A DNA stretch of 64,000 nt from Flavobacterium resistens (GTDB lineage: Bacteria; Bacteroidota; Bacteroidia; Flavobacteriales; Flavobacteriaceae): contig NZ_FXTA01000001.1 of the NCBI RefSeq assembly GCF_900182645.1, positions 1,054,001-1,118,000 on the forward strand, given 5' to 3'. A model generated the notes under the pieces. That model was given only the letters and a program-made list of their open reading frames with translations. It was not told the DNA's origin and made no database searches. Shown in pieces: positions 20,053 to 41,857 of this stretch (position 1 is its first letter; each line of letters starts with the position of its first letter). A program made the translations under genes and the position numbers.

Positions 20053-20102
20053 TCTTAGTCCCGATAGCTATCGGGATAGCTCCTTAGAACCTTAGCATCT
20101 TA
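20053..20102. repeat. Family A repeat containing an 18-bp perfect palindrome (family D)
   Basis: TCCCGATAGCTATCGGGA (20059-20076) is perfectly palindromic and is embedded in CTTAG words of family A (CTCCTTAGAACCTTAGCATC), which run to the stop codon of nagB. It probably forms part of the 3' end of the nagB transcript. Confidence 0.65.
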
Positions 20103-22028
20103 ATAATGCCATCTCACAAAAGCTTCCATTGCTGCATAAGTCGCTAAACCTAATTGTTGATACAAAGCTGCTGTTTCGCTGTTTCTGTCTTCAGCTCTTT
20201 GCCAAAATTCTCTGGCATCAGTTCCTTGGAAAACAACGCCATCTTTTTGAGATTGGTGTTTGAAGATTCCGTGACGTTTTGCTAAAACTTGATCCGGGCT
20301 CATTGGAACTGCCATTTCAACTTCATCAATTCCCCATTCCTGCCAAGCTCCGCGGTATAACCATAACCAACAATCATCCATAAATGATTTTGGTTTCAGA
20401 ACTTTTACAGCTTCAAAAATAGCGTCCAAACAAACTTTATGCGTTCCATGTGGATCTGCTAAATCTCCAGCTGCATAAATTTGATGTGGTTTGATTTTTT
20501 CAATTAAATCAACCGTTAGTTGAATATCTTCTGGTCCGATTGGTTTTTTCTCAATTGTTCCCGTTTCATAGAAAGGCAATTCCATAAAATGAATTTGACT
20601 ATCTGGCAAACCAACAAAATGACTTGTTGCTCTCGCCTCTCCTTTTCTGATCAATCCTTTAATGTAACGAACTTCTGGAATATCAATTTCACTATTCTTT
20701 TTATTCTCTAAAAAGGTGTGTGCTTTTTGATAAATGTTGTCAGCCTCTGCGCTTTTGATTCCGAATTTCTCATTGTAATCAATTACGAATCTTGCAAAAC
20801 GCAACGCTTCATCATCCGCGACAGCGATATTTCCTGAAGTTTGGTAAGCCACATGCACTTCATGTCCCTGCTCTTGCAAACGCATGAAAGTTCCACCCAT
20901 ACTGATAATATCATCATCTGGGTGCGGACTGAAAATCAATACACGTTTTTTAGCCGGCTCAGCTCTTTCAGGACGATTTGTGTCGTCTGCATTTGGTTTT
21001 CCACCTGGCCAACCTGTAATTGTATTTTGAAGTTTATTGAAAATTTTAATATTAGTGTCATACGCCGGACCAGAATCTGCCAATAAATCGCTCATTCCGT
21101 TTTCGATGTAATCAGCATCAGTAAGCTTTAAAATTGGTTTTTTAAGATCTAATGCCAATCCTAAAACCGCTTTACGAGTTAATTTATCTGTCCAGACAAT
21201 TTTTTCAACCAGCCAAGGTTTATTAATTCTGGTAAGTTTTGAAGAAGCTTCCTTATCCAAAATAAAAACAGCATTATCATGTTCTTGCAAAAACGAAGCT
21301 GGAACTCGGTTTGTAACTTCATCTTCAACAGATCTTTTTACAATATTTGCTTTTCCTTCTCCCCAAGCCAATAAAATTACTCTTTTAGCTTCCATGATTT
21401 TTTTAACTCCAAGCGTGATTGCTGTTCTTGGCGTATTATTTAATCCGAAGAAATCTTTGCTTGCTGCAACTCTTGTTATATGATCTAAAGCCACTAAACG
21501 GGTTTTAGAGTTTTGTAGCGAACCTGATTCGTTAAAACCAATATGTCCGTTTCCTCCAATTCCAAGAATCTGCAAATCGATTCCGCCTAAAGCTTCAATT
21601 TTAGCTTCATATTCATGGCAATAATCTGCAATTTGTTCTTTTGTTAAAAGTCCGTCTGGAACATGAGCGTTTTCAGGCAAAATATCGACATGATCAAACA
21701 GCAATTCTTTCATAAAACGAACATAACTGTTGATTGAGTTTGGTTCCATCGGATAATATTCATCCAAATTAAAACTGATTACGTTTTTAAAACTCAAACC
21801 TTCTTCTTTATGCAAACGAACTAATTCAGCATAAAGTCCTTTTGGAGAAGAACCGGTTGCCAAACCTAAAATGCAAGGCTGATTTTCTTTTTGTTTTGAC
21901 TGAATTAAAGCTGCAATTTCCTGAGCAACTGCTTTTGAAGCTTCTGAAGAATTTTCAAAAACAACCGTGTTGATGTTTTCGAATCGTTTTTCGAATCCCG
22001 TTGCCTTGTCGATTTTACTTTTTAACAT
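20100..22028 (-). CDS. nagB: Glucosamine-6-phosphate deaminase fused to a PIG-L/LmbE deacetylase-like domain
   Basis: A 642-residue cytosolic protein. Residues about 1-275 are a complete NagB isomerase-deaminase (LATGSSPKGLY, SFNLDEYYPM, GIGGNGHIGFNE, TLGVKKIM), converting glucosamine-6-phosphate to fructose-6-phosphate and ammonia. Residues about 365-630 are a PIG-L/LmbE-type zinc deacetylase domain with its N-terminal SPHPDDDIISMGG motif and C-terminal DPHGTHKVC His motif intact. NagB alone is about 260 residues, so this is the long Bacteroidota form. No nagA is in the window. An attractive inference is that the second domain removes the acetyl group before deamination. It follows the permease gene by 32 bases. 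Confidence 0.9.
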   Translation of the reverse strand: MLKSKIDKATGFEKRFENINTVVFENSSEASKAVAQEIAALIQSKQKENQPCILGLATGSSPKGLYAELVRLHKEEGLSFKNVISFNLDEYYPMEPNSINSYVRFMKELLFDHVDILPENAHVPDGLLTKEQIADYCHEYEAKIEALGGIDLQILGIGGNGHIGFNESGSLQNSKTRLVALDHITRVAASKDFFGLNNTPRTAITLGVKKIMEAKRVILLAWGEGKANIVKRSVEDEVTNRVPASFLQEHDNAVFILDKEASSKLTRINKPWLVEKIVWTDKLTRKAVLGLALDLKKPILKLTDADYIENGMSDLLADSGPAYDTNIKIFNKLQNTITGWPGGKPNADDTNRPERAEPAKKRVLIFSPHPDDDIISMGGTFMRLQEQGHEVHVAYQTSGNIAVADDEALRFARFVIDYNEKFGIKSAEADNIYQKAHTFLENKKNSEIDIPEVRYIKGLIRKGEARATSHFVGLPDSQIHFMELPFYETGTIEKKPIGPEDIQLTVDLIEKIKPHQIYAAGDLADPHGTHKVCLDAIFEAVKVLKPKSFMDDCWLWLYRGAWQEWGIDEVEMAVPMSPDQVLAKRHGIFKHQSQKDGVVFQGTDAREFWQRAEDRNSETAALYQQLGLATYAAMEAFVRWHY

Positions 22029-22060: not shown

Positions 22061-23434
22061 TTACCATTTTCGGTATTTGTGTCCTTTTACAGCATAAAAA
22101 AGAATCATTACATAAGATGGTAAAAGCATTAAATATGCAAGCTGATTGCCACTTCTTGAAGTTGCTTCTGTCCCGGCTGCAATATTTGATGTATTTATAG
22201 TTTCGGTAATCAAGCCATAAAACAAAGGAAAGATTGCACCTCCAATAATTCCCATAATTAAAATAGCACTTCCTATTTTAGTGTATCCACCCAAATCTTC
22301 TAATGCCATTGGCCAAATCGCCGGCCAGCAAAGTGCATTTGCTAAACCTAATAAAGCTACCAAAAGAATTACAATTGGCAAATTTGGAATTCCCGGCAAC
22401 TGAATCATTAATTTTGGTGAAATCAGAACAATTGACAGAACCAAAATAATTCCTAAAACTCCAGATCCTTTTAAAGCTGTTACTTGCGAAAGGTATTTTG
22501 GAATCAAAGTTATTCCTAAAATATAGCCCACAACCATCGCCGACATTGTGAAAGAAGTTAATTTTAAGTAAAAATTCCCTTCATCTCCATAAACACCTAA
22601 TTGTTTTCCAAAACCTCCAATTGAATCTCCCGCCAAAACTTCGGCTGCCAAATAAAGCATCAAAGTTACAACTCCTAAAACCAATTGAGGGCGTTTGAAT
22701 GCGTTTTTAATTTGCTTAAAAACACTCAAATTTGTTACATTTCCATCTTCATCCAAATCAATCTCTGGGAGAGGTGAAAGCTTCACAAACAAAGCCAACA
22801 CAATAATAATCAACCCCATATAAAGGTAAGGTCTTTGTAATTGCAAAGCAAGGGAATTTAATGCATTTGATTTTGAAACAGAATCCAGCATTGCAATTTT
22901 GTCTGCCGTGAACTCTTGCATATTTGACAAAACCAAAGCTGTTAATATAATTGGCGCTACAAATCCTGCTAATTTATTAGCAATTCCTAAAACGCTAATT
23001 CTTGCTGCAGCACTTTCCCTTGGACCAATTACAACTACATACGGATTTGAAGCCGTTTGTAAAATCGCTAAACCAGTTCCCATGACAAAGAGCGCTATTA
23101 AAAACAATAAAAAAGTACGGCTTTCGGCGGCTGGATAAAATAAAAATGCTCCTAAAGCAATAATCAATAATCCGAGCGAAATACCATTTTTGTAGCCTAC
23201 TTTTTCGATAACCCACGATGATGGCACAGCCATAACAAAATATGCAATATAAAAAGCAAAAGTTACAAAGTAAGCCTGAGATGGAGATAACTCACATGCT
23301 AATTCAAAAAATGGAATTAATGGTCCGTTAAGCCACGTTACAAATCCGAGAATAAAAAATAATGCGGTCAAAATAACCATCGGAATTATTGAATTCCTTT
23401 TTTCTACCTGGATAACATTTTCAATGTTCGACAT
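22061..23434 (-). CDS. Sugar MFS permease (FHS family, NagP/FucP-like)
   Basis: A 457-residue inner membrane transporter with about 12 hydrophobic segments. FHS-family features include GFVTWLNGPLIPFF in helix 1, VMAVPSSWVIEKVGYKNG after helix 2, and LQTASNPYVVVIGP, the counterpart of the conserved AANPY motif of fucose permeases. It would import a monosaccharide by proton symport. Being immediately upstream of nagB points to N-acetylhexosamine or a related sugar. A -7 element and two operator-like palindromes lie just upstream (23505-23554), so this pair probably has its own regulated promoter. Confidence 0.86.
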   Translation of the reverse strand: MSNIENVIQVEKRNSIIPMVILTALFFILGFVTWLNGPLIPFFELACELSPSQAYFVTFAFYIAYFVMAVPSSWVIEKVGYKNGISLGLLIIALGAFLFYPAAESRTFLLFLIALFVMGTGLAILQTASNPYVVVIGPRESAAARISVLGIANKLAGFVAPIILTALVLSNMQEFTADKIAMLDSVSKSNALNSLALQLQRPYLYMGLIIIVLALFVKLSPLPEIDLDEDGNVTNLSVFKQIKNAFKRPQLVLGVVTLMLYLAAEVLAGDSIGGFGKQLGVYGDEGNFYLKLTSFTMSAMVVGYILGITLIPKYLSQVTALKGSGVLGIILVLSIVLISPKLMIQLPGIPNLPIVILLVALLGLANALCWPAIWPMALEDLGGYTKIGSAILIMGIIGGAIFPLFYGLITETINTSNIAAGTEATSRSGNQLAYLMLLPSYVMILFYAVKGHKYRKW

Positions 23435-23608: not shown

Positions 23609-24484
23609 TTAAGACTCCCAGTTAAGTACTGGATAGTGCTTTTTAAGATATTCTTTGACGTCGGCAATGTCTTCTTTTGCCGTCAAATCAGGAACATGCT
23701 CTGAAAATGGAATTCCGATTGTGGTGTTTGGATTTGCTTTTACAGTATTCAAAAGAACTGTAGGTAACTCTTTTTCATCTCTTTCAGGATTTACCGGACA
23801 ATTTTTAAGATGATTATATAAAGTCTTTCCAGTAAACTTAAAAGCATTCATACTTACTCTTATTTTCCCTTCCACATCTTTATAATGTTCCAAATCAGAA
23901 GCTTCTGGTTTTTCTAAAATATCCAATAACTGATTATTTTCATCCAATTTTGCAATGGCGAAACGCGAAATTCTTTCCAAAGGAAATTCCAAAGCATCAC
24001 GATCATAACTTATAAATGCATTCGGACTGGTCGTTTCTCTTAAAGCCAACAAAGCTTCTGCAGAATACAAATTATCGCTATTACAAACAGAATATTCCAA
24101 TTCGTTCAGTTCGGGAAATTGCTCAACAGCCTGAAAAAGCGCATCGGCAGTACCAAAAGGTTTAATCCTTCCTTCTGGAATATATTGAACTGCAAATGAA
24201 ATATTTAATCCATGAAAATCATTATCAGTATCATGACTTCCGTAAAATTCTTTAAACAATTCGCCCTGTTCTCCTATAATGATGTAAATATTTTGATAAC
24301 CTGCTTTTTTAGCGTTCAATAAAAGGTAATCCAGTAAAGGTCTTCCACTTGATCCAACGCCAATCAAACCTTTACTTCTTTCATTTGCCTGAGCTATTTC
24401 TTCAGCAGATAAATTATCTGTAACGGCTTCTTTTTTCATACGCGACGATGCTCCGCCCGCAAGAATAACTAAATTGTTGTGCAT
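23609..24484 (-). CDS. Sugar-phosphate nucleotidyltransferase-like protein
   Basis: A 291-residue protein with a nucleotidyltransferase (GT-A-like Rossmann) fold. VILAGGASSRMKKEAV replaces the usual GGxGTRL nucleotide loop, NIYIIIGEQG and a VCNSDNLYS metal-site equivalent follow, and a late EKPEASD stretch matches EKP of pyrophosphorylases. I start at the ATG at 24484 (MHNNLVILAGG). The longer frame opens only with a TTG and would overlap the kinase gene. It begins 10 bases after the kinase stop, so kinase and nucleotidyltransferase are a tight pair. Together they could turn a sugar into a sugar-1-phosphate and then a nucleotide sugar. The exact sugar is not known. Confidence 0.75.
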   Translation of the reverse strand: MHNNLVILAGGASSRMKKEAVTDNLSAEEIAQANERSKGLIGVGSSGRPLLDYLLLNAKKAGYQNIYIIIGEQGELFKEFYGSHDTDNDFHGLNISFAVQYIPEGRIKPFGTADALFQAVEQFPELNELEYSVCNSDNLYSAEALLALRETTSPNAFISYDRDALEFPLERISRFAIAKLDENNQLLDILEKPEASDLEHYKDVEGKIRVSMNAFKFTGKTLYNHLKNCPVNPERDEKELPTVLLNTVKANPNTTIGIPFSEHVPDLTAKEDIADVKEYLKKHYPVLNWES

Positions 24485-24494
24485 ATTTCTTTCT

Positions 24495-25586
24495 CTAAAT
24501 TTCAATATTTTCAATAATTCTCACGCCTGGATCAACAGTTACACTATAAGCTTCTTGTGCGCCAGCATTCAAAATCGCCTCAATAACTGAAGCTTCATTT
24601 TTAGGATCTGCAATTACAACAATGCTTCCTCCGCCTCCAGAACCTACAATTTTTGCTCCGAATGCGCCCGCGCGAAGAGCCGCATTTATCATAGCATCAA
24701 TTCGTGGAACGGTGATTTTCAATAAGTCACGTAAAACTTCATGATGTTGATTCATCCAAAAACCAATTTTTTTCAGATCTAAAACGGGTTTTTCAAATTC
24801 TTTTAATGCTTCTTTAGTATAATGATAATTTTTCAATGCCGCTTCAAAAAACGGAATCAAACGATCTGGAAGACAATTTTTATAACGGCCAATATCTTCA
24901 ATTTCAGAAGCATTCAAATCAAAATCAGGATAATTTTGTTTTACGAGATCAATAGCCATTAAAGCATTTCCTTTTAACTCTCCAATTAATCCGATAGTCT
25001 CTTTTGGAACTCCGGAAACTCCTGTAATCAAACCTTTTAATTCTGTGCCGATAGAACGATAGGAAAAAGGATCTTTTGTATTGATAAAAACAATATTCCC
25101 TACTCCAATACTAAAATGGTCCATCATTCCGCCAGGTTCTCCGTGCTCTAAAACTTCAGATGCATATCCTATTTTGGCAATAAATTCCGGAGTGACTTCT
25201 TCATTAACTCCAAAGGCTTCGATTAAAAACCGAATCCAGGCCATTAATAATGCCGATGAACTTGATGTACCAGAATTTATTGGAATATCTCCTGTAATCG
25301 TAATTGTGTATCCACTTGTAGGAATACAGCCATGCCTGCGCAAAACACGCAATGATGAAGCGAAATAATCTCTTGGCTCGAGTTTTTCAAAAGATGCATT
25401 AATATCAATGACTCTAATTTCATTGATATCAATCATATTAATAATAAATGTATTTGTGTTATTTTGCTCTGCGGTCAGTTTTATATTTCGATCTATCGCG
25501 CAGGCTATAACAGGCAATCCTAAATAGTCCTGATGATCTCCAAAGAGACAAGTACGGCCCGGGGCGAGTGAAGTAATTTTTTTCAT
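24495..25586 (-). CDS. GHMP-family sugar kinase (galactokinase-like)
   Basis: A 363-residue cytosolic kinase with the three GHMP motifs: an N-terminal substrate motif, GRTCLFGDHQDYLGLPV, which resembles galactokinases; the ATP loop PINSGTSSSSALL (about residues 96-108); and KIVGSGGGGSIVV near 315. LEHGEPGGMMDHFS supplies the catalytic Asp region. It likely phosphorylates C1 of galactose, N-acetylgalactosamine or a related sugar. It is the first gene after the left copy of the duplicated promoter/operator module (25675-25761) and is coupled to the nucleotidyltransferase gene. Substrate is inferred from locus context only. Confidence 0.82.
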   Translation of the reverse strand: MKKITSLAPGRTCLFGDHQDYLGLPVIACAIDRNIKLTAEQNNTNTFIINMIDINEIRVIDINASFEKLEPRDYFASSLRVLRRHGCIPTSGYTITITGDIPINSGTSSSSALLMAWIRFLIEAFGVNEEVTPEFIAKIGYASEVLEHGEPGGMMDHFSIGVGNIVFINTKDPFSYRSIGTELKGLITGVSGVPKETIGLIGELKGNALMAIDLVKQNYPDFDLNASEIEDIGRYKNCLPDRLIPFFEAALKNYHYTKEALKEFEKPVLDLKKIGFWMNQHHEVLRDLLKITVPRIDAMINAALRAGAFGAKIVGSGGGGSIVVIADPKNEASVIEAILNAGAQEAYSVTVDPGVRIIENIEI

Positions 25587-25675
25587 GTAAACAACTTACA
25601 TTAGAATATTATAAATCAGTAATTTACAATATTTATTGGTTATAAATTTATTTGATATTTCCGGTTTTGATTCTA

Positions 25676-25706
25676 CGAAACTATATATTAAATTTTGATA
25701 AAACAA
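25676..25706 (-). promoter_or_regulatory. Promoter of the GHMP kinase operon
   Basis: On the minus strand TTG (25706-25704), an 18-base spacer, and TATAGTTTCG (25685-25676), close to the TAnnTTTG consensus. The same elements at the same spacing are kept in the inverted copy before susC, which supports their importance. The leader would be about 85 bases. Confidence 0.6.
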
Positions 25707-25721
25707 GAAAAAAACAAAAAA

Positions 25722-25758
25722 TGTGCTCGAACACACAAAATTTATGTTCTCGAGCACA
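25722..25758. promoter_or_regulatory. Pair of LacI-type operators, left copy
   Basis: Two near-palindromes centred on TCGA: TGTGCTCGAACACA (25722-25735) and TGTTCTCGAGCACA (25745-25758), with centres 23 bp apart. A central CG in an even palindrome is typical of LacI-family operators. They lie upstream of the kinase -33 element and 60-97 bases before the regulator gene, so they could serve both divergent genes. Confidence 0.75.
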
Positions 25759-25805
25759 TAATTCAAATCAATCAATTTTTTTTCCGATAATTAAATCAAA
25801 GTTTT

Positions 25806-25813
25806 TATATTTG
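25806..25813 (+). promoter_or_regulatory. Probable -7 element of the LacI regulator gene
   Basis: TATATTTG matches TAnnTTTG exactly and ends only 5 bases before the ATG at 25819. Transcription would begin at or within a couple of bases of the start codon, implying a leaderless message. Confidence 0.4.
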
Positions 25814-25818
25814 CTTAT

Positions 25819-26856
25819 ATGGATAAAAAGTACACAATCAAGGATATTGCGCAAATGGCTGGTGTTTCTAAGGGAACTGTAGATCGCGTTTTACATAATA
25901 GAGGAAAAGTTTCTCCGGCTGCGCTTGAGAAAATCAATGAAGTTTTGAATGTTATTGACTACGAACCAAACTTAATTGCACGCAATTTAAAGAGCACTAA
26001 AATTTATCGCGTTTGTGTTTTGCTTCCTGATCCGGCATTTGACCCCTATTGGCTTCCTTGCGTGAACGGAATTCAAGATGCCATTACAGAATTCAAAGCA
26101 TATAGCGTTATTATTGAAACTCATTATTTTAATCCAGAAAGTACTAAATCATTTTTAAAGGTTAACGAAACCATTATTTCACAATCTCCTGATGCTGTTT
26201 TACTAACTCCGCTATTTCACAAAGAAACTGTCGAGATCATCAAACAGTACGATGAATTGGGAATTATGGTAAATACTTTCAACAACCAGGTTGAATCTTC
26301 ATCTGTTAAAAGTTTTGTTGGACAGGATTTGCACAAAAGCGGACGCGTTGCGGCGAGTTTAATGAATTTAATTTTAAACAAAGGCCAAATTGCGATTATC
26401 CACATTGACGAAAGTCTTAAAAACGCAGTTCACATGCAGGAAAAGGAAAAAGGATTCAGAAATTATTTTGACGAAAAAGAACTTTCTGATTTCTCTTTAA
26501 CCACTCTGAAACTCAAATATTCTAATATTGAAACTAAGTTTACCGCATTTCTGGAAGAAAATCCAGATTTGAGCGGGATTTTTATTACTACTTCAAAAGC
26601 GTATCAAATCGCCTCTGTTTTATCATTGGCAACAACCAAAAAAATTGCACTTATTGGTTACGATTTAATTGAAAAGAATGTAAATTTCTTAAATCAGGGA
26701 AAAGTTCATTTTTTAATTCATCAAAATCAAAAAAGACAGGCTTATTTGGGGGTCAGCACTTTAGTGGAGCATTTTTTATTCCGAAAAGAGTTTCCGGACA
26801 CTATTTTGCTTCCAATTGATATTATCAATTCTGAAAATGCATCTTTTTATTTTTAA
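25819..26856 (+). CDS. LacI-family transcriptional regulator of the glycan locus
   Basis: A 345-residue regulator. The N-terminal helix-turn-helix reads YTIKDIAQMAGVSKGTVDRVLHNRGKV with a hinge helix ending IARNLKS. Residues about 65-345 form a periplasmic-binding-protein-like sensor (VCVLLPDPAFDPYWLPCVNGI, SPDAVLLTPLF, VNTFNNQV, GIFITTSKA) of the Bacteroidota sort that includes sugar-binding LacI proteins. Two palindrome pairs with central CTCGAG flank the gene (25722-25758 and 27956-27992), so it is the obvious regulator of the kinase arm and the susCD arm. The inducer is unknown but probably a sugar or sugar phosphate from the imported glycan. Confidence 0.9.
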   Translation: MDKKYTIKDIAQMAGVSKGTVDRVLHNRGKVSPAALEKINEVLNVIDYEPNLIARNLKSTKIYRVCVLLPDPAFDPYWLPCVNGIQDAITEFKAYSVIIETHYFNPESTKSFLKVNETIISQSPDAVLLTPLFHKETVEIIKQYDELGIMVNTFNNQVESSSVKSFVGQDLHKSGRVAASLMNLILNKGQIAIIHIDESLKNAVHMQEKEKGFRNYFDEKELSDFSLTTLKLKYSNIETKFTAFLEENPDLSGIFITTSKAYQIASVLSLATTKKIALIGYDLIEKNVNFLNQGKVHFLIHQNQKRQAYLGVSTLVEHFLFRKEFPDTILLPIDIINSENASFYF

Positions 26857-26863
26857 GCTGCTA

Positions 26864-26915
26864 TCCTGATAGTTATCGGGACTAAGACACTAAGATTCTA
26901 AGGTTTTTTATTTCT
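26864..26915. repeat. Family D palindrome followed by family A CTAAG words
   Basis: TCCTGATAGTTATCGGGA (26864-26881), nearly palindromic, continues into CTAAGACACTAAGATTCTAA. It is the same composite as at 20053-20102, in the opposite orientation, just after the LacI gene stop. Confidence 0.55.
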
Positions 26916-26969
26916 GGTAAATTAACTTCTAAACCTTTGCTCCTCTGTTTCTTTATCACTTTATCTAAA

Positions 26970-27608
26970 CTATTTGATCAAAATCAACTTACCAAAAGAC
27001 GAAGCGATATGAAAATTTGGAGTTTCGGTATTTGGATTTACCCATGAAATCCATGTTGGTTCGTAGTTTTGATTTTCATCTTTAGAAAATTTTGCCCTAA
27101 AAATACCCGCTTCAATTATATTGTTCTGAATCAAATTCAATTTGTTCAATGATTCAATACTAATTCTCCCTTCAACAGTAAAAGAAACTTCATCTTTTGA
27201 AGCTGTTATGCTTAAATCTTCTTTTGGCCATTTCCAGCTGAAATCAAAATCTTTATTCGGCTTTGCCTCAAAATCCATTAATCTTGCCGAAGTATCTATT
27301 TCAAGGCAATAATACGGATTCAGAGAATCATTTGCTCTAAAAAAAAGCTCAACACGATCTGAGTTTCCAATACTATCAATACTATTGTCTTTTTCATCAA
27401 TATAAATATCAGTATCAAAAACCCTAAAATTAAAATAGAGGTTTTGAGCATTCCAAAGTGCACGAAACTCAATTTTAGAAACCAAATCATTATTCCATGG
27501 CGATGAAAAATCAGTCAGACAATTTGCATTTTCCCAAATTGACTGATCCAAAATTTCCATTTCATTTTTCACATTTTTTGTGATTAAAACTACTTGATAT
27601 TCTTTCAT
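26970..27608 (-). CDS. Carbohydrate-binding family 9-like protein without signal peptide
   Basis: A 212-residue beta-rich protein matching the CBM9-like/DOMON-type sugar-binding fold: WENANCLTDFSSPW, a FRALWNAQNLYFNFRVFD strand pair, SDRVELFFR, YYCLEIDTSARLMDF and FTVEGRISIESL are the usual landmarks. It has no signal sequence, and an in-frame TAA lies four codons upstream of the ATG, so it should stay in the cytoplasm, unlike most CBM9-like proteins of such loci. It is convergent with the LacI gene. It might bind imported sugar. No catalytic residues are apparent. Confidence 0.72.
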   Translation of the reverse strand: MKEYQVVLITKNVKNEMEILDQSIWENANCLTDFSSPWNNDLVSKIEFRALWNAQNLYFNFRVFDTDIYIDEKDNSIDSIGNSDRVELFFRANDSLNPYYCLEIDTSARLMDFEAKPNKDFDFSWKWPKEDLSITASKDEVSFTVEGRISIESLNKLNLIQNNIIEAGIFRAKFSKDENQNYEPTWISWVNPNTETPNFHIASSFGKLILIK

Positions 27609-27955
27609 GATTTTGATTTAAAATTTTTGTTAATTTTTGATTTTTAAAAAACCCGAAAACATCTTTAAACTCCGCTTCTGAAACTATTCATTTTTAAAGA
27701 AACTAAATCTGCTTTAAAGATGAATAAAAAACTTTTGCTTTTCTTAAATAAACCGAAAAATTCCTTTTAAAAAGACATCAGAAAACCCTGCTTAATTTAT
27801 ACGATTTTGAGTCAGTCATTGCGAAATTCATAACTATTTTTAAAAACACCATTTATTATTTAAAAAAGCACACTTTTTAAATGTCTGCTAATTTCTAATT
27901 TTTTTTTAAAATATCACATCATTTTAGCGTAAAAAAAATGTATCGCACAATTTTA

Positions 27956-27992
27956 TGTGCTCGAGAACATAAATTTTGTGTGTTCGAGCACA
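27956..27992. promoter_or_regulatory. Pair of LacI-type operators, right copy
   Basis: TGTGCTCGAGAACA (27956-27969, inside the 20-base near-palindrome TTATGTGCTCGAGAACATAA) and TGTGTTCGAGCACA (27979-27992). Centres are 23 bp apart, and the pair is the mirror image of the left copy. Confidence 0.75.
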
Positions 27993-28008
27993 TTTTTTAT
28001 GTTTTTTC

Positions 28009-28039
28009 TTGTTTTATAAAAATATAATCTATAGTTTCG
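28009..28039 (+). promoter_or_regulatory. Promoter of the susCD transcript
   Basis: TTG (28009-28011), an 18-base spacer and TATAGTTTCG (28030-28039). It is identical in spacing to the kinase promoter. The operator pair sits just upstream of the -33 element, at roughly -59 and -82 from the expected start. Confidence 0.6.
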
Positions 28040-28284
28040 TCAGAGATTAATCTTAAAACTGAGTTAAATCAGTAAAATTTTTGGTGATTTTGAAGCCTAA
28101 AAAATGATCAAAAATGAAGTGAACAAGCTGTATTTCGACTGAAAAATTAAACGGTTTTTTTTAGAAGAAAACAATACAACAGAAATCAAATAAAAAACAA
28201 AAATGAATTTGAGAATCAAAAAAGAAGTCTAAAACCTACAAACAACAAAAAACAAATTAATCATTAACCAAAACCAATTTTCGT

Positions 28285-31200
28285 ATGAAATTATTAACCC
28301 AAAAAAAGCCAAGAGATTTTCGGATTAACAATTTATCCCGTAAAGAAATTAAACTAACAGTTCTTTCACTATTAGCTTTGACATTTCAAGCTTCGGCAGC
28401 TACATCAATAAGCACTTCAAACAAAAATTATACTTCATTATTTTTTGAGAAAACAGTAAAAGGTACAGTAACAGATCAAAACGGACTGCCTCTTCCTGGT
28501 GCAAATGTTGTCGTAAAAGGTTCCACAAAAGGAGTTCAGACAGATGTTGACGGAAGTTTCTCGATTACTGTAGCAGACAACGTTACTAAACTTGTTGTAA
28601 CCTACATTGGTATGGAAGATCAGGAAGTATCAGTAGGAAGCTCTCCTCTAAAAATTGTCATGAAAGAAGCAGGACAAAAATTAGACGAAGTTGTTATTGG
28701 ATACGGAAAATCAAAGAAAAAAGATCTTACTGGTTCTGTTGCTTCTATCAGTAAAGACAACTTAAACTTAGGCGGAACCGTTTCAAACGTTGGGCAGGCT
28801 TTACAAGGTCGTGCTTCTGGAGTTCAGGTACAGCAAAACAGCTACGCGCCTGGAACTAATCCTTCTGTTGTAATTAGAGGTGGAAACTCTATTAATACTT
28901 CAAATGCGCCTTTGTACGTAGTTGACGGGTTTATTACCAGCACCGGAGGATCTATCAGTCCAAATGATATTGAAAATATCCAGATCCTGAAAGATGCCGC
29001 TTCTACAGCAATTTATGGTGCACGAGGTGGAAATGGGGTTATTTTGATTACTACCAAAAAAGGAAAATCAGGAAAAATGCAGGTTGAGGCTGAAATTTCT
29101 GATGGTTTTCAAAATATCATCAAAGAGCCATCTTTAATTACGGGACAACAATATGCTGATATTCAAAACGCAATTGCATTAGAAAACGGAAGACCACCGG
29201 TTTTCCCTGCAAGTTTTCCTATTGCAAACACAAACTGGTTTGAAGCTGCAACGCGTCCTGGTGAGGTTTTAAACAGAACGCTTACTTTCAGTGGAAGCGA
29301 TAAAACGTCTAAATTTTTCCTTTCTGGAAACTATTTAAAACAAACCGGAGCTATTGAAAATACAGATTTTGAAAGATATACTGTAAGAATGGGCGGCGAG
29401 AAAAGATTTAATGACAAATTAAACATGGGAACGAATGTTTATGGCGCTGTGAGTGAAGGAAATAACAGTGATTTTGGAGACAATATTTTATCTCCGATGT
29501 TCTCTATCCAGACTGCACCTCCAACAATTCCTATTTATAATGCTGATGGTTCTTATTACAAATATCAAGGTAAAGACAATGCTTTGGCGCTTTTACTAGA
29601 ACCTACTGACCACACGATCAACAGAATGGTGAACGGAAATATGTTTTTAGATTATGAAATCATTAAAGGTTTAACGTACCACTTTGGTGCTGGTGCTGAA
29701 TGGCAGGAAGTTATTCAGGGAAAATATACACCAAGTACTTTAGTAGCCGGAGCTGCATTAAAAGGATCTGGATCTGAGGAAAACAGAACGTATTTCAGAT
29801 GGAGTACGGAACAATATTTGACTTATAAATTTAATATCGCAGAGCAACATGCATTTACTGCAATGATTGGAACTTCAAATCAAAAAGATACTTACGAAAG
29901 AGTAAAAGCGTCTGGAACTGGTTTCTCAAGTGACTTGCTTACATATTACAATCTTCAGGGAGCTGCAGTTTATTTAAAACCAGAAACTGAAAAAACAGAA
30001 ACAAAACTTACTTCTTATTTTGGAAGGCTAAATTATGCATTCAATGACAAATATCTTTTCACTTTTACAATAAGAAAAGATGGTTCTTCTCGTTTTGGGC
30101 CAAACAACAAATTTGGTATTTTCCCATCAGGAGCTGTGGCTTGGAAATTGTCTAATGAATCATTCATTCAAAATCTGAACACTTTTTCTGATCTTAAATT
30201 AAGAGCCAGCTACGGTATTACAGGAAGTGACGGTATTGGTGATTACTCTTACATGAGCAGACTGCAATCATGGGGCGTAACAATTGCACCTGATCAATTT
30301 GTTGCAGGTACTGAACCAGCCAACTTGGCAAACCCGAATTTAAAATGGGAACAAACAGCTCAAACGAACTTAGGTTTGGACATGGGATTCTTTAATGACA
30401 ATGTTACAGTTACAATTGATGCCTACAAAAAAAGAACTTCAGATGCTCTTTTGAACGTTCCTGTTGGAGGATGGTGGGGATTCGGAACGCAAAGAGTTAA
30501 CTCTGGAGTTATCGACAACAGCGGAATTGAGTTAGGAATCAGCACAGTAAACTTTAAAACAGATAAATTCACTTGGAGTTCATCTTTAAACTTAGCTTAC
30601 AACAAACAAGAAATTGTATCTCTTGCTGATAACGTAAAAATCATCAGTACAAATACTTCAAATCCAAGCGGAACTGTTTCTGGACAGGAATTCACAAGAT
30701 TAGAACCAGGAAAAGAAATGGGCGTTTTATACGGTTATAAATATGCAGGAGTTATCAAAACTGGAGAAACTTATGCTCCACAACCGCTTTCTAAACCAGG
30801 AGATCCAAAATATGTGGATGTTGACGGAGACGGTACAATTACTGCTGCAGACAGAACTTATTTAGGAAATTCTATTCCGCATTATATTGCTGGTTTCAAT
30901 AATGATTTCAGATATGGAAACTTTGATATGAATATCTTTTTCCAAGGTGCTTTTGATTATTCAGTATATAATATGACTGCAATGGTGGGCGAATCATCTA
31001 CAAGCACAGATGCCTTGAACCGTTGGGTTGCCGGAACAAATGAAAACACTGATATTCCGAGAGATGGTTACTACAAAAGCAAATATGGAAGTTATGTGAA
31101 TTCTAAATTTGTTGAAGAAGCGTCTTACCTGCGTTTAAAAAATGTTTCTATTGGCTATTCGATTCCTGAAAGCGCTTTAAAAACAGTAAAATTTATTGAC

Positions 31201-31371
31201 AGCATTAGATTATATGCTATCGGACAAAATTTATTGACGATCACAAATTATTCTGGAAATGACCCAGAGGTTAATGGGCACTCAGGAAACAATTTAGGCG
31301 GTGGAATCGATTTTAACTCGTTCCCAGCTTCAAGAACTTTTATACTTGGTATTAAAGTAGCAATTCACTAG
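28285..31371 (+). CDS. SusC/RagA family TonB-linked outer membrane transporter
   Basis: A 1028-residue outer membrane protein. After an unusually long charged N-terminus and signal sequence (to about residue 40, ending QASAA) comes a carboxypeptidase-D-like domain (about 55-135, GTVTDQNGLPLPGANVVVKG). The plug follows (about 145-265, with LDEVVIGYG, PLYVVDGF and IYGARGGNGVILITTKKG), then the beta-barrel to an aromatic-rich end (FILGIKVAIH). It imports oligosaccharides using TonB energy with SusD as lid. The susD gene starts 32 bases later. The upstream module ties its expression to the LacI regulator. Confidence 0.95.
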   Translation: MKLLTQKKPRDFRINNLSRKEIKLTVLSLLALTFQASAATSISTSNKNYTSLFFEKTVKGTVTDQNGLPLPGANVVVKGSTKGVQTDVDGSFSITVADNVTKLVVTYIGMEDQEVSVGSSPLKIVMKEAGQKLDEVVIGYGKSKKKDLTGSVASISKDNLNLGGTVSNVGQALQGRASGVQVQQNSYAPGTNPSVVIRGGNSINTSNAPLYVVDGFITSTGGSISPNDIENIQILKDAASTAIYGARGGNGVILITTKKGKSGKMQVEAEISDGFQNIIKEPSLITGQQYADIQNAIALENGRPPVFPASFPIANTNWFEAATRPGEVLNRTLTFSGSDKTSKFFLSGNYLKQTGAIENTDFERYTVRMGGEKRFNDKLNMGTNVYGAVSEGNNSDFGDNILSPMFSIQTAPPTIPIYNADGSYYKYQGKDNALALLLEPTDHTINRMVNGNMFLDYEIIKGLTYHFGAGAEWQEVIQGKYTPSTLVAGAALKGSGSEENRTYFRWSTEQYLTYKFNIAEQHAFTAMIGTSNQKDTYERVKASGTGFSSDLLTYYNLQGAAVYLKPETEKTETKLTSYFGRLNYAFNDKYLFTFTIRKDGSSRFGPNNKFGIFPSGAVAWKLSNESFIQNLNTFSDLKLRASYGITGSDGIGDYSYMSRLQSWGVTIAPDQFVAGTEPANLANPNLKWEQTAQTNLGLDMGFFNDNVTVTIDAYKKRTSDALLNVPVGGWWGFGTQRVNSGVIDNSGIELGISTVNFKTDKFTWSSSLNLAYNKQEIVSLADNVKIISTNTSNPSGTVSGQEFTRLEPGKEMGVLYGYKYAGVIKTGETYAPQPLSKPGDPKYVDVDGDGTITAADRTYLGNSIPHYIAGFNNDFRYGNFDMNIFFQGAFDYSVYNMTAMVGESSTSTDALNRWVAGTNENTDIPRDGYYKSKYGSYVNSKFVEEASYLRLKNVSIGYSIPESALKTVKFIDSIRLYAIGQNLLTITNYSGNDPEVNGHSGNNLGGGIDFNSFPASRTFILGIKVAIH

Positions 31372-31403: not shown

Positions 31404-32921
31404 ATGAAAATGAAAAAATATACAATATTATTCCTTTTACTCGCTGCAGGAGTACAATTTTCGTGCAACGAAGATTTGGATCCAACAGTATATAGCAATT
31501 TGACTAATACGAATGGGTATCAAACCAAGTCAGATGCTATTGCGTCAATCAATTCCATTTACGGAAGACTGAAAGGTCCTGCTGTAGGCGATAACTTTTC
31601 ATACTGGGCAACAAGACACTTCGCCTTGACTGATATAGCTACAGATTTAGGACATTGTCAATATGGAGGAGATCCAGGACAATTATCATTAGGAACATGG
31701 AGTTCGACAAACGGATTGCTGGCTGAAGACTGGAACGCGATGTACAAATTGATTGCCAATGCAAACAACGCAATTTTCAACATTACACCAATGTCTGGAA
31801 TTACAGCAGCAGAAAAAGCACAATTTATAGCTGAAGCTAAATTTTTGAGAGCTTCTGCTTATATGGATTTGACTGATTCTTGGGGGCCTGTAATTTTAAT
31901 CACTGAGGCCAATTTAGGAAGTCCTGGTTATTTAGATCAGACACCACCATCATCTGTTGAAGAAATTGATGCTTTCCTTGTAAAAGAATTAACTGAAGCT
32001 GCTGATGTATTGCCAGTAAACTATAAAAGCAATGCTATTTATAGTACAAATGACGTTGGTAGAGCTACAAAAGGAGCCGCACTTACTTTATTGGCAAAAC
32101 TTTATATGCGCAGCCACGATTGGCAAAAAGTAGTGACATTGACACAACAAGTAATGGCTTTAAACGAATATAGTTTATATCCTTCTTACTTAGGTTTATT
32201 CAAAGAAAGTAATAAATGGTGCAGTGAAAACATCTTCTCTTCTTTGAGTGATGCTAACACAAACGGAACAGAATTATTGAATCATTTTGGACCAATTGAT
32301 CACCCAGTTGTCGAAAACAGATGGCAGTATTATACGGTAAACTGGGATTTCTACAACACTTTTGGTGACGAAGATGATAGAAAAAAATGTTTCTTCCCAG
32401 AATTTATGGGAACTGACGGTCTTCTTCATAAACAAGCGCCATCATTAGGAGCTCAGCCACCAGCTGGTGAATTTTATATGCCAGACGTATCAACAAGAAA
32501 ATATGCTGATGATGAAACAACAACCTATTATGACGGACATAGTGTGAATATTTTACGTTATGCTGATGTTTTGTTAAGCAGAGCTGAAGCTTTAAATGAA
32601 ATCAACGGTCCTACTCCTGAAGCTATTAACTTGATTAATCAGGTAAAAGGAAGATCACACGCTAAATTATTGGTTTTAGCAGGTTTGACGAAAGAAACGC
32701 TAAGAGATGCGATATTACAAGAAAGAGGCTGGGAACTTTTCTATGAAGGAAAACGTCGTGCCGATTTGATCAGAATGAACAAATATGATGTTCTTGTAAA
32801 CGCTTACCACCTTAGAGTTGGAGAAGCAGCACAAATCAAAATGCCACAAAATAAGTATTACACTTATCCACAAAGTCAGGTAAATCTTAACCCTAAATTA
32901 AGTAATGCCGACAGACAATAA
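31404..32921 (+). CDS. SusD/RagB family surface glycan-binding lipoprotein
   Basis: A 505-residue lipoprotein. A signal peptide ends in the lipobox QFSC followed by NEDLDP, an acidic export signal for the cell surface. The SusD fold is seen in SINSIYGRL, the TPR-like helices (WNAMYKLIANANNAI, AEAKFLRASAYMDL) and the C-terminal RYADVLLSRAEALNEING, ILQERGWELFYEGKRRADLIR signature. It captures glycan for the SusC partner encoded just upstream. Two nearby ATGs (31404 and 31410) are possible. I keep the first. A long hairpin follows the stop. Confidence 0.94.
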   Translation: MKMKKYTILFLLLAAGVQFSCNEDLDPTVYSNLTNTNGYQTKSDAIASINSIYGRLKGPAVGDNFSYWATRHFALTDIATDLGHCQYGGDPGQLSLGTWSSTNGLLAEDWNAMYKLIANANNAIFNITPMSGITAAEKAQFIAEAKFLRASAYMDLTDSWGPVILITEANLGSPGYLDQTPPSSVEEIDAFLVKELTEAADVLPVNYKSNAIYSTNDVGRATKGAALTLLAKLYMRSHDWQKVVTLTQQVMALNEYSLYPSYLGLFKESNKWCSENIFSSLSDANTNGTELLNHFGPIDHPVVENRWQYYTVNWDFYNTFGDEDDRKKCFFPEFMGTDGLLHKQAPSLGAQPPAGEFYMPDVSTRKYADDETTTYYDGHSVNILRYADVLLSRAEALNEINGPTPEAINLINQVKGRSHAKLLVLAGLTKETLRDAILQERGWELFYEGKRRADLIRMNKYDVLVNAYHLRVGEAAQIKMPQNKYYTYPQSQVNLNPKLSNADRQ

Positions 32922-35494: not shown

Positions 35495-38491
35495 ATGAAA
35501 CTAAACCTAAACAAACAACTCATAAATAAAATATTGATTGCGTGCTTTTTCGTATTCAGTATTTCATTGACTGCACAAATAAAATATTCAGATGGAAATG
35601 ACAGCTGGAATCCGAATCAATTAGGAAATCACCGCGCTGTAGTTACCTTTTCTGGTTCAGGAAATGTTGCTAAAACAACAATCGAATGGCGAAGAAGAGA
35701 CACAAATCCGGAACTTAAAAAAATTATTGTTCAGGATGCATCTGGAAAGGAAATTCAGAATATAAAAACAGAAAACATCAATAGAGAAAACGGAACTATT
35801 TTCTTTGAACCTATTTCAGGAAAAGGAACATATTACGTTTATTACATGCCTTATGTTGATGAAGGAACTGCTAATTATCCGAAAGGAATTTATCAAAAAC
35901 CTGAAAACAAAGCTGATGCACAATGGCTTTCTAATATAAAAGCAAACTTAAAAGACAATACATCAGTAACTGAAATTCAGAGTGTAAATGCTTTCAATAG
36001 TTTTTATCCTATGGAAGTGATTGCAACAGCATCTGAAACTTCAGCTCTTGTGGCAAAAAACAGTGGAAATTCATTTTTAGTTTTTCCAGAAGACAGAGAA
36101 CATTCTATCAAACTAAAATCGGATTTACCGCAAAGATGGATTCAGAAAGGTGTTCAAAATAGCTTTTCTGATACGGCAATGAAAGGTGAATATTTAGCTT
36201 TTCAATTAGGTGTTTATGCTCTTGAAGATATCAAAAATGTCAAGGTGACTTTTTCAAATTTAGTTAGCCCAACAGGAACAATTGATGCAAAAAATATTAG
36301 TTGTATCAACACTGACGGAACTAAATATGATGGTAATCCTTTTACCAACACTGTTTCAGTTTCAAAAGGAAAAATTCAGGCAATGTGGTGCGGAATTGAT
36401 GTTCCTCAAACTGCAACGGCTGGAACTTACAAAGGAAAAGCGACAGTTACTGCTGACGGAAAATCAAAAGAAATTGAACTTCAAATTACGGTTTCTAACG
36501 AAGTAACAAAAAACGGAGGAATAGACAGTCCAGAAAAAATGACGCGTTTAAAATGGTTAAACTCAACGTTAGCACAGGAAAATACAGTTATTGCTCCTTA
36601 TACTCCATTAACAATAAACAATTCTGAAATTTCATTATTAGGAAGAAAACTGATTTTGGCAGCGAATGGATTCCCTGCACAAATCCAGACTTTCTTTACT
36701 CCAGAAATGACTTCTGTAACAGCAAAAGCAAATGATGTTTTAAGCTCACCAATCGATTTTCATTTTGTTGATGCATCTGGAAAAGAAGCACAATGGAAAA
36801 ACAGCGGTATAAAATTCACTAAAAAAGAAGCTGGAACCGTTTCTTGGGAAAATACTTCGACTTCAAAATCGGTTCAAATGGATGTAAATGCTTCTGTTGA
36901 ATTTGATGGTTTCGTACATTATATTGTAAAAGTTACTGCTCTTGAAGATGTTTCTTTCAGTGACATTAATTTCCAAATGCCAATACAGCCAACTTCTGCA
37001 AAATACATGATGGGATTAGGCCAAAAAGGTGGAGATCGTCCTGCAACTTTTGACTGGAAATGGGATGTCGCTCATAAAAATCAAGATGGCGCTTGGATTG
37101 GCGCTGTAAATTCTGGATTGCAGTTTTCTTTGAGAGACGAAAAATACAGCCGTCCGTTAAACACAAATTTCTATTTGCAAAAACCTTTGTTATTGCCAAC
37201 TTCTTGGGGTAACGATAATAAAGGAGGAATTACGATTACGCCTAATCAAAAATCAGTTTTAGTAAATGCGTACAGCGGAGCTAGAACAATGAAAAAAGGT
37301 GAAGTTTTATATTATAACTTCAACTTGTTGATTACGCCTTTCCATACTATCAATACAGATTTTCAATGGGATACAAAGTTTTATCACAAATACAGCCCAA
37401 TCGATTCTATTGCTAAAACTGGTGCAACGGTAATCAATATTCACCACGCAAATGCAATTAATCCATATATCAATTATCCTTTTATCGAATTTAAAAAGAT
37501 GAAATCGTATATTGATGAAGCCCATGAAAAAGGATTAAAAGTGAAAATCTATAATACGGTTAGAGAAGTTTCAAACAAAGCTTATGAAACTTTCGCTTTA
37601 AGAAGTTTAGGTCACGAAATTTATTCTCCAGGAAAAGGAGGCGGTTTCTCTTGGTTGCAAGAACACGTTGGCGACGATTATATCGCAGCTTGGTTTGTGC
37701 CAGAAATTAAAGATGCTGCAATCGTAAACAGCGGCATGAACCGTTGGCATAATTATTATGTGGAAGGAATGAATTGGTTAACTCAAAATGTTGGTATTGA
37801 CGGAATTTATCTGGACGACGTTGCCTTCGACAGAATCACAATGAAACGTATCAAAAGAGTTTTAACTAAAGACGGTCATCCGGGAATTATCGATTTGCAC
37901 AGTGCGAATCAATACAACAAAAGCGACGGATTTAATAACAGTGCCAATTTATACATGGAGCACTTTCCGTACATCAACAAATTATGGTTTGGAGAATATT
38001 TCGATTACGAGAAAAATCAACCTGACTTTTTCTTGACCGAAGTAAGCGGAATTCCGTTTGGATTAATGGGAGAAATGCTTCAAGATGGTGGAAATCCATG
38101 GAGAGGAATGGTTTACGGAATGACAAACAGATTGCCGTGGAGCGACGGTGCTGACCCAAGAAATATCTGGAAAGTTTGGGATTCTTTCGGAATTAAAGGT
38201 TCTGAAATGATTGGATATTGGAGCGAAAACTGTCCTGTAAAAACAAACAACGATAAAGTATTGGCGACAGTTTACAAAAAGAATGGAACAGCCTTAATTT
38301 CAATTGCAAGCTGGGCAGATGCTGATGTAAATGTGAAATTAAATATCGATTGGAAAAAACTAGGAATCAATCCTGCAAAAGCAACAATTACAGCTCCGGA
38401 AGTTACCAATTTCCAATCCGCAAAAACGTTTACAGCTAAAGACGAAATACCAGTTTCTAAAGGAAAAGGCTGGTTGTTGATTATTAAATAA
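35495..38491 (+). CDS. Large secreted GH123-like (DUF6067) glycoside hydrolase candidate
   Basis: A 998-residue protein with a Sec signal (ends SLTAQ at about 28). The first 480 or so residues are beta-rich modules like those in front of GH123-type enzymes (DUF6067/GH123_N). Residues about 630-910 look like a TIM barrel, with INIHHANAINPY, GLKVKIYNTVREVSN, GIDGIYLDDVAFDR (a likely catalytic Asp pair), IIDLHSANQYN and GEYFDYEK. The last 90 residues form a beta-sandwich. Known GH123 enzymes are N-acetyl-beta-galactosaminidases. This fits with the GH109 and GH35 genes downstream. The exact specificity is unproven. Confidence 0.7.
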   Translation: MKLNLNKQLINKILIACFFVFSISLTAQIKYSDGNDSWNPNQLGNHRAVVTFSGSGNVAKTTIEWRRRDTNPELKKIIVQDASGKEIQNIKTENINRENGTIFFEPISGKGTYYVYYMPYVDEGTANYPKGIYQKPENKADAQWLSNIKANLKDNTSVTEIQSVNAFNSFYPMEVIATASETSALVAKNSGNSFLVFPEDREHSIKLKSDLPQRWIQKGVQNSFSDTAMKGEYLAFQLGVYALEDIKNVKVTFSNLVSPTGTIDAKNISCINTDGTKYDGNPFTNTVSVSKGKIQAMWCGIDVPQTATAGTYKGKATVTADGKSKEIELQITVSNEVTKNGGIDSPEKMTRLKWLNSTLAQENTVIAPYTPLTINNSEISLLGRKLILAANGFPAQIQTFFTPEMTSVTAKANDVLSSPIDFHFVDASGKEAQWKNSGIKFTKKEAGTVSWENTSTSKSVQMDVNASVEFDGFVHYIVKVTALEDVSFSDINFQMPIQPTSAKYMMGLGQKGGDRPATFDWKWDVAHKNQDGAWIGAVNSGLQFSLRDEKYSRPLNTNFYLQKPLLLPTSWGNDNKGGITITPNQKSVLVNAYSGARTMKKGEVLYYNFNLLITPFHTINTDFQWDTKFYHKYSPIDSIAKTGATVINIHHANAINPYINYPFIEFKKMKSYIDEAHEKGLKVKIYNTVREVSNKAYETFALRSLGHEIYSPGKGGGFSWLQEHVGDDYIAAWFVPEIKDAAIVNSGMNRWHNYYVEGMNWLTQNVGIDGIYLDDVAFDRITMKRIKRVLTKDGHPGIIDLHSANQYNKSDGFNNSANLYMEHFPYINKLWFGEYFDYEKNQPDFFLTEVSGIPFGLMGEMLQDGGNPWRGMVYGMTNRLPWSDGADPRNIWKVWDSFGIKGSEMIGYWSENCPVKTNNDKVLATVYKKNGTALISIASWADADVNVKLNIDWKKLGINPAKATITAPEVTNFQSAKTFTAKDEIPVSKGKGWLLIIK

Positions 38492-38513
38492 TCAACAATT
38501 ACCTCGTACTGTT

Positions 38514-38613
38514 TGTCATTTCGACAAAGGAGAAATCACACAAGAAATTCCATACAGAAAATCGCCAATCTTTATCGATTTACGAGTGTGATTTCTCCTT
38601 CGTCGAAATGACA
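38514..38613. repeat. Dispersed long inverted repeat (GTCATTTCGAC type, family C)
   Basis: A 28-base arm at 38514-38541 (TGTCATTTCGACAAAGGAGA then AATCACAC) pairs with 38586-38613 with one mismatch, across a 44-base spacer. The sequence resembles a repeat that I recall as frequent in Flavobacterium genomes. Here it separates the GH123-like and DUF5107 genes. Confidence 0.7.
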
Positions 38614-38632
38614 AAAATGCAAAAAATTTAAT

Positions 38633-38668
38633 GCCACTCCTGATAGCTATCGGGAGTGGCAAAAAAAA
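38633..38668 (+). terminator. Hairpin terminator with family D palindrome in its loop
   Basis: GCCACTCC (38633-38640) pairs with GGAGTGGC (38653-38660), enclosing TGATAGCTATC, followed by eight A residues. TCCTGATAGCTATCGGGA (38638-38655) is the third copy of the family D palindrome in the window. Confidence 0.6.
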
Positions 38669-38690
38669 CCACAAAAACTAGCTCTCCACC

Positions 38691-41786: not shown

Positions 41787-41794
41787 AAAATGTA

Positions 41795-41827: not shown

Positions 41828-41857
41828 ATCATAAAACAATCATTTAAAATCAAAAAA

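What the first reader, a model, noticed from the sequence alone, without database searches (positions are those of the whole stretch)
25675..28040. An 87-bp promoter/operator block is duplicated in inverted orientation around the regulator
25675-25761 and 27953-28040 are near-perfect reverse complements: 46 bases identical at the operator end, then a few differences, with TTG and TATAGTTTCG kept. Each copy carries two TCGA-centred palindromes 23 bp apart and an outward promoter, one toward the kinase operon and one toward susC. The LacI gene and a CBM9-like gene lie between. This wires two arms to one switch, and the inverted pair could also loop or allow inversion of the 2.2 kb between them.
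Basis: partly seen in the sequence, partly recalled or inferred. Interest (0 to 1): 0.8.

Follow-up and report, generated by a model that had tools for sequence, protein, structure and literature searches.

The report
Paired promoter switches around sugar regulator
In a Flavobacterium genome the same 87-base control block sits in front of both the uptake genes and the processing genes of a predicted amino-sugar glycan pathway, with a regulator gene between them, and its rigid layout across dozens of related genera suggests that the regulator likely switches both gene sets on together rather than blocking them.

Summary
25675-25761 and 27953-28040 are about 94% identical inverted copies, each with two CG-centred palindromes 23 bp apart and an outward promoter. 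They hold 4 of the genome's 5 exact sites.

The block tracks the LacI gene between them: 41 of 42 genus genomes with this LacI carry it (E<=1e-6), 0 of 157 without. The same site adjoins lacI relatives in 38 of 40 loci from other genera.

The new result is geometry. A -7-like box starts 38-40 nt past the operator in 19 of 22 divergent targets and 15 of 16 susC targets of other genera, but in 1 of 22 cases on the lacI side of the same operators. Named loci agree: 70 of 75 and 64 of 64. Predicted operator centres lie near -58 and -81, upstream of the promoter.

Best reading: a portable operator-promoter cassette through which LacI likely activates, class-I style, the amino-sugar arm and whichever SusCD locus sits behind it (two non-orthologous SusC types do).

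Inversion is unsupported (no inverted form in 42 loci). Looping is untested and the layout does not require it. Binding, sign of control and sugar are unproven.

The parts
25675..25761 (-). Block A: operator pair plus promoter facing the kinase / NTP transferase / MFS / nagB-like genes
   Evidence: kinase-side blocks in 29 of 80 instances
25722..25735 (.). Operator A-proximal TGTGCTCGAACACA, centre at about -57.5 of the predicted kinase start site
   Evidence: start site inferred from TAnnTTTG = -12 to -5 in F. psychrophilum (PMC9723704, passage)
25745..25758 (.). Operator A-distal TGTTCTCGAGCACA, centre at about -80.5
25676..25683 (-). Predicted -7 box of the kinase operon, TAGTTTCG on the - strand; predicted start 25671
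24495..25586 (-). GHMP-family sugar kinase, first gene of the intracellular arm
   Evidence: Pfam; PDB relatives: mevalonate kinases (best), galactokinases, N-acetylgalactosamine kinase
23609..24514 (-). NTP transferase (sugar nucleotidyltransferase family)
22061..23434 (-). MFS sugar transporter; best NCBIfam hit NagP, below that model's cut-off; gluP model above its cut-off
20100..22028 (-). NagB-like glucosamine-6-phosphate deaminase domain fused to a PIG-L deacetylase domain
25819..26856 (+). LacI-family regulator (LacI HTH plus Peripla_BP_4)
   Evidence: recognition helix VSKGTVDRVLHNRGKV
25807..25814 (+). Predicted -7 box of lacI, TATATTTG, ending 5 nt before the ATG (predicted leaderless mRNA)
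26970..27608 (-). CBM9-like protein between lacI and block B
   Evidence: a relative lies beside lacI in 34 of 42 loci
27953..28040 (+). Block B: operator pair plus promoter facing susC
   Evidence: susC-side blocks in 33 of 80 instances
27956..27969 (.). Operator B-distal TGTGCTCGAGAACA, centre at about -81.5
27979..27992 (.). Operator B-proximal TGTGTTCGAGCACA, centre at about -58.5
28009..28011 (+). TTG, candidate -33 element, 20 nt before the -7 box
28032..28039 (+). Predicted -7 box of susC, TAGTTTCG; predicted start 28044, 241 nt before the susC ATG
28285..31371 (+). SusC (TonB-linked outer membrane receptor)
31404..32921 (+). SusD
35495..48798 (+). Likely further genes of the susC arm: GH123, DUF5107-TPR, M1 peptidase, DUF5077/DUF3472, GH109, GH35
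   Evidence: that they share the susC transcript is inferred

Best explanation
The two inverted 87/88-bp blocks are conserved copies of one control cassette, a pair of CG-centred palindromes at a fixed distance upstream of a predicted promoter box, which the LacI-family protein encoded between them likely binds and from which it is predicted to activate RNA polymerase in class-I fashion, so that one sugar signal would turn on both the SusCD uptake arm and the kinase/NagB-like intracellular arm. Shown directly: the copies, the palindromes, their 23-bp spacing, the fixed distance to a -7-like box, the co-occurrence with this LacI gene, and the same layout in other genera. Inferred: that LacI binds the palindromes; the transcription start sites (by analogy with F. 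psychrophilum), hence centres near -58 and -81; activation rather than repression; and a GalNAc- or GlcNAc-type sugar as signal, from gene content. The inverted order follows from two operons pointing away from a central regulator; no inversion is proposed. The cassette seems portable, because non-orthologous SusC genes sit behind it in different species.
For: Co-occurrence: 41 of 42 genus genomes with the LacI have the block at E<=1e-6, 0 of 157 without. Rare site: 5 exact sites in 5.04 Mb, 4 of them here. Operator spacing is 23 bp in 81 of 88 pairs counted over spacings 15-44. In 80 of 84 pairs at spacing 22-24 the best TATAGTTTCG-like box sought 34-55 nt downstream scores at least 7 of 10, and all 80 lie at 36-38. 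In other genera an exact operator adjoins lacI in 38 of 40 loci. Offset scan with TANNTT: the best 3-nt window is 38-40 on both independent target types, 19 of 22 (shuffle mean 1.7, max 6) and 15 of 16 (mean 0.9, max 4), against 1 of 22 on the lacI side of the same operators. The 3 divergent exceptions carry one more operator nearer the promoter and keep one at 38-41, so 22 of 22 have such an operator. Named loci, not selected for a promoter box: 70 of 75 on the A side, 64 of 64 on the B side. Loci fetched after the rule was first seen: 40 of 40 clusters, one of them (L223) a repeat of L183. Of 33 SusC behind blocks, 21 are 79-100%, 11 are 31-33% and one is 27% identical to the window's.
Against: Most LacI-family regulators are repressors (recalled), and GalR can repress from a site near -60 (recalled), so position alone does not settle the sign. 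No expression, binding or start-site data exist for this locus. Three other-genus loci (L195, L205, L207) have an extra operator whose centre would fall near -36, over the -33 region, where repression is as easy to picture. With the stricter box (TAnnTTTG, at least 5 of 6) the divergent set gives 17 of 22 but the susC set only 1 of 16; the looser TANNTT was adopted after reading those sequences. A promoter-weakness argument failed: TTG-N20-TAnnTTTG is not unusual in these stretches, and the non-consensus -6 base of the genus blocks is not kept in other genera. Eight of 42 loci have no strict block within the stretch shown around lacI. Five lacI relatives at 35-41% identity from other families and two at 35-38% in the family have no exact site; one of these two, L184, still has a near-identical recognition helix. 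Within the genus the lacI-side distance is also constant among close relatives, so the internal control rests on the other genera.
Confidence: 0.6

Rival explanations
1. Ordinary sugar-released repressor: LacI bound at the two operators blocks the promoters from upstream, by contacting polymerase or through a nucleoprotein complex, and the sugar releases it.
For: The usual LacI-family mode (recalled). Tandem sites about 22 bp apart are common in the family (PMC4052901, section 9). GalR represses from about -60 (recalled). Three other-genus loci have an extra operator over the -33 region.
Against: In most targets no operator overlaps -33, -7 or the predicted start: named loci 70 of 75 and 64 of 64, other genera 34 of 38. 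A pure blocker would not need near base-level constancy of distance at promoters whose other sequence differs between genera.
Confidence: 0.28
2. DNA-loop switch: LacI assemblies join blocks A and B across about 2.2 kb.
For: Two operator pairs flank the regulator in 28 of 42 loci and in 61 of 80 named loci, partly the same genomes, 1.8-3.0 kb apart.
Against: The distance varies. Six of 42 loci have a block on one side only, many other-genus loci have one cluster near lacI, and solitary blocks occur elsewhere in the genome. The inverted order is explained by the divergent operons alone.
Confidence: 0.08
3. The inverted repeats are a recombination substrate that flips the lacI segment or homogenises the copies.
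For: In 23 genomes, copies in one genome are slightly more alike than copies from different genomes (promoter part 0.92 against 0.90, permutation p 0.0015; 9-bp spacer 0.60 against 0.55, p 0.015; relatedness not corrected). Only the window and ASV13 have identical 37-mers.
Against: No inverted form in 42 loci. Operator identity is explained by binding constraint. Occasional gene conversion would be a by-product, not a function.
Confidence: 0.04

Closest known systems
LacI-family local sugar regulators (RegPrecise collection, Ravcheev et al. 2014, PMC4052901; abstract, section 9 and passages seen)
   Same: HTH plus sugar-binding domain, even palindromes with central CG, tandem sites with a 22-bp peak, local sugar genes, a site next to the regulator gene.
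   Different: The term Flavobacter does not occur in that text. Here the target promoter sits at a fixed offset from the operator across genera, and the same operator-promoter block precedes SusCD loci.
LacI-family regulators with activation: Cra/FruR, and PckR predicted from site position (PMC4052901, passages); CcpA at ackA (recalled)
   Same: Some sites read as positive control; for PckR the mode was predicted from site position.
   Different: Those are global carbon regulators; this one lies beside its own pathway genes.
NagR (LacI family) of gammaproteobacteria (PMC5343134, passages)
   Same: Amino-sugar genes and, in two Xanthomonas species, a kinase and TonB-dependent receptors in one regulon.
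   Different: Different phylum. Motif and sign of control were not compared here.
BtAraR of Bacteroides (NrtR family; PMC4666351, passages)
   Same: Two tandem operators, effector-sensitive local sugar regulator in the same phylum.
   Different: Unrelated protein family; arabinose abolished its DNA binding.

Membership tests
LacI-family transcription factor | LacI-type HTH at the N terminus plus periplasmic-binding-protein-like domain | tested here: met
   PF00356 52.8 bits (cut-off 27) and PF13407 112.6 bits (cut-off 35.1)
LacI-family transcription factor | CG-centred even palindrome next to the gene | tested here: met
LacI-family transcription factor | Binds that palindrome and responds to a sugar | not testable with these tools
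   co-occurrence only
Class-I transcription activator | Binding site upstream of the promoter elements at a fixed helical position | tested here: met
   start sites are predicted, not mapped; three loci have an extra nearer operator
Class-I transcription activator | Loss of the protein lowers target transcription; contact with the alpha C-terminal domain | not testable with these tools
   no expression data
Polysaccharide utilization locus | SusC/SusD pair with glycoside hydrolases | tested here: met
   TIGR04056 835 bits; SusD, GH123, GH109, GH35
Invertible promoter element | Both orientations observed between inverted repeats | tested here: not met
   no inverted form in 42 loci
Invertible promoter element | A recombinase gene nearby | not tested
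   no dedicated search; none among the 16 window proteins scanned

The most novel reading that the evidence does not exclude
Flavobacteriaceae run a clade of LacI-family class-I activators whose operator-promoter cassette is a portable socket: any SusCD locus that acquires the cassette is placed under the amino-sugar regulator, so uptake systems can be swapped behind a fixed switch, while the regulator itself is made from a leaderless transcript.
Probability: 0.45. Interest if true: 0.68.

Novelty: new variant of a known kind. Interest (0 to 1): 0.55.

Why it matters
LacI proteins beside SusCD loci tend to be read as repressors by default (my own impression of the field, not from a call). A site whose distance to the target promoter is held across dozens of genera, while its distance to the neighbouring lacI promoter is not, makes the sign of control a direct question for experiment. 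It also gives a compact, probably inducible promoter cassette and a motif with which to list the regulon in many genomes.

Tried and rejected
Promoter weakness as evidence for activation: rejected, because spacing 20 and the -7 variants are not unusual in these stretches and several other genera have consensus boxes. Identity of the two copies as the conserved feature: rejected. Inversion: rejected. Gene conversion: left open. In one search the labels A and B are swapped for loci with lacI on the minus strand; later scripts orient by lacI. The first recognition-helix pattern was too narrow and was replaced, which recovered 4 of the 7 own-genome LacI sequences. The counts 29 of 29 and 33 of 33 are on blocks already chosen for having a box 34-55 nt downstream, so I rest instead; confidence was lowered slightly (0.62 to 0.60) when this, the strict-box result and the extra operators of L195, L205 and L207 were set out. 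At the search tool's own threshold (E<=0.001), 74 of 199 genomes match the block; I counted at 1e-6 because the values break between 4.0e-7 and 2.2e-5. The 32 matching genomes without LacI all lie above that break; the matches listed for them mostly cover about 25-50 of 91 bases, and the list of matches was cut. Of 46 places other than the own genome I fetched 40 as long stretches. Four operator pairs without a promoter-like box were left out of the downstream-gene count. The organism is placed in Flavobacterium by named relatives, the nearest with 99% identical LacI. No published description of this regulator or site was found in the ten searches, which cover open-licence papers only.

Full report
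Observation. The two segments are as described. They are inverted copies of 87 and 88 bp, about 94% identical by BLAST, exact over 46 bp at the operator end. Each has two palindromes of the form TGTKNTCGANMACA with centres 23 bp apart and a promoter pointing outward. The genome of 5.04 Mb has 5 exact matches to that form, 4 of them here. Between the copies lie the LacI gene and a CBM9-like gene.

Surroundings. Leftward run a GHMP kinase, a nucleotidyltransferase, a NagP-like transporter and a NagB/PIG-L fusion. Rightward run SusC, SusD, an arylsulfotransferase-like protein, a cytochrome c, GH123, a DUF5107 protein, M1 peptidase, DUF3472, GH109 and GH35. GH109 is described as alpha-N-acetylgalactosaminidase in PMC7440613 (passage); GH123 as beta-N-acetylgalactosaminidase is recalled. 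The locus reads as use of a GalNAc-containing glycan; the substrate is inferred.

Does the block belong to the regulator? Among 199 genus genomes, 42 hold the LacI gene (E<=1e-60), and 41 of those hold the block at E<=1e-6; none of the other 157 does (counted from the tables). The exception, G104, has its lacI near the end of a 13.5-kb contig and a weaker match of 7.5e-5. At the tool's looser E<=0.001, 32 of the 157 also match. In a larger draw 94 of 398 genus genomes hold the LacI gene, and 45 of 299 family genomes do. In 40 long stretches from other genera an exact site lies within about 1.4 kb of the lacI start in 38; the two misses are the most distant relatives there, 35-38% identical. 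The recognition helix is nearly invariant, VSKGTVDRV(L/I)H in most of the 81 relatives read.

Anatomy. In 60 fetched stretches plus the window, site pairs occur at spacing 23 in 81 of 88 cases over spacings 15 to 44. Of 84 pairs at spacing 22-24, 80 have a TATAGTTTCG-like box (best match sought 34-55 nt downstream), all at 36-38 nt; TTG lies 20 nt before TAGTTTCG in 69 of the 80. None of those 80 has T at position 7 of TAnnTTTG. First genes behind the 80 blocks: 33 SusC, 29 kinase, 5 DUF3472-type, 2 nucleotidyltransferase, 1 GH109-type, 10 other or off the stretch. Others include an APH-family kinase, GH31, an NAD epimerase and a metallophosphatase; one DUF3472 protein carries ricin-type lectin domains. 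Of the 33 SusC, 21 are 79-100% identical to the window's, 11 are 31-33%, one is 27%. Genomes G186 and G174 carry both main types, each behind a block. The uptake gene thus changes while the block stays.

Order. Blocks flank lacI on both sides in 28 of 42 loci, on one side in 6, and at this strictness on neither in 8; several of those 8 genomes have weaker block matches. In the loci with blocks, those shown upstream of lacI point away from it on that side and those downstream point away on the other. No locus is inverted; L097 shows lacI alone and cannot tell. In 80 named loci, partly the same genomes, 61 have both, 14 A only, 3 B only, 2 neither; the copies are 1.8-3.0 kb apart.

Geometry as evidence on mechanism. 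In F. psychrophilum the consensus TAnnTTTG lies at -12 to -5 (PMC9723704, passages). Applied here, operators are centred at -57.5 and -80.5 (kinase side) and -58.5 and -81.5 (susC side). For other genera, with the strict box (at least 5 of 6 letters of TAnnTTTG), the divergent targets have it at 38-40 nt in 17 of 22 (shuffle mean 1.2, max 5), the lacI side in 1 of 22, and the susC-after-lacI targets in only 1 of 16. The last set uses a different box. With the loose pattern TANNTT, chosen after seeing that, the best 3-nt window of all offsets is 38-40 in both sets: 19 of 22 (shuffles mean 1.7, max 6) and 15 of 16 (mean 0.9, max 4). On the lacI side it is 1 of 22; that side's own best window (27-29) holds 10 of 22. 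The three divergent exceptions carry one more operator 22-23 bp nearer, and in 22 of 22 some operator of the cluster is at 38-41. Named loci not chosen for a promoter box give 70 of 75 (A side) and 64 of 64 (B side). Loci fetched after the rule was first seen give 40 of 40 clusters, one a repeat. Operators thus mostly lie upstream of the promoter at one helical position, the layout of a class-I activator. A 22-bp spacing between sites fits cooperative dimers, as argued for the family in PMC4052901 (section 9 read).

Limits. Start sites are predicted, not mapped. Position does not prove sign: GalR acts negatively near -60 (recalled), and the extra operators of L195, L205 and L207 would lie near -36. 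Promoter weakness gave no support. Five lacI relatives from other families, 35-41% identical, lack the site. Within the genus the lacI-side distance is also nearly constant among close relatives. Genomes are related, so counts are not independent events; the other-genus set is the fairer one.

Copy identity. Copies in one genome are slightly more alike than copies between genomes (relatedness not corrected). The identical 37-mer on both sides is shared only by the window and ASV13. Occasional conversion between copies is possible.

Verdict. A real, conserved regulatory cassette of a known protein family, with a layout that favours activation. I rate it a new variant of a known kind.

Noticed in passing
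window 25807-25821: lacI is predicted to have a leaderless mRNA: TAnnTTTG ends 4-8 nt before the ATG in 39 of 43 genus loci and 20 of 22 divergent-type loci of other genera, but in 1 of 18 loci of the other layout. In F. psychrophilum leaderless mRNAs are 5.5% of those mapped (PMC9723704, passage).
   Followed up: partly
window 28285-31371 and L079, L080, L082-L085, L089-L092, L107: Two non-orthologous SusC types (79-100% and 31-33% identity to the window's) sit behind the same block in different species; G186 and G174 carry both.
   Followed up: partly
window 26970-27608: A CBM9-like gene faces lacI on its downstream side in 34 of 42 genus loci; role unknown.
   Followed up: no
L170-L176, L178-L183, L186, L187, L189: A second layout (LacI 45-50% identical) has the operator after lacI and, in most, in front of susC, with a different -7-like box, often TAAATTCAC or TAATTTCAC, at the same offset.
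   Followed up: partly
window 6505-6528, 20082-20102, 26881-26903, 55030-55050, 55802-55825: A short intergenic repeat of the kind CTTAGAACCTTAGCATCTTAG recurs in both orientations.
   Followed up: no
window 48802-48835: A perfect inverted repeat (AAAAAAGCCATTCACCGCGGTGAATGG...) just after the GH35 gene, likely a terminator.
   Followed up: no
window 33023-35449: An arylsulfotransferase-like gene and a cytochrome c gene lie inside the SusCD locus; unusual companions for glycan hydrolases.
   Followed up: no
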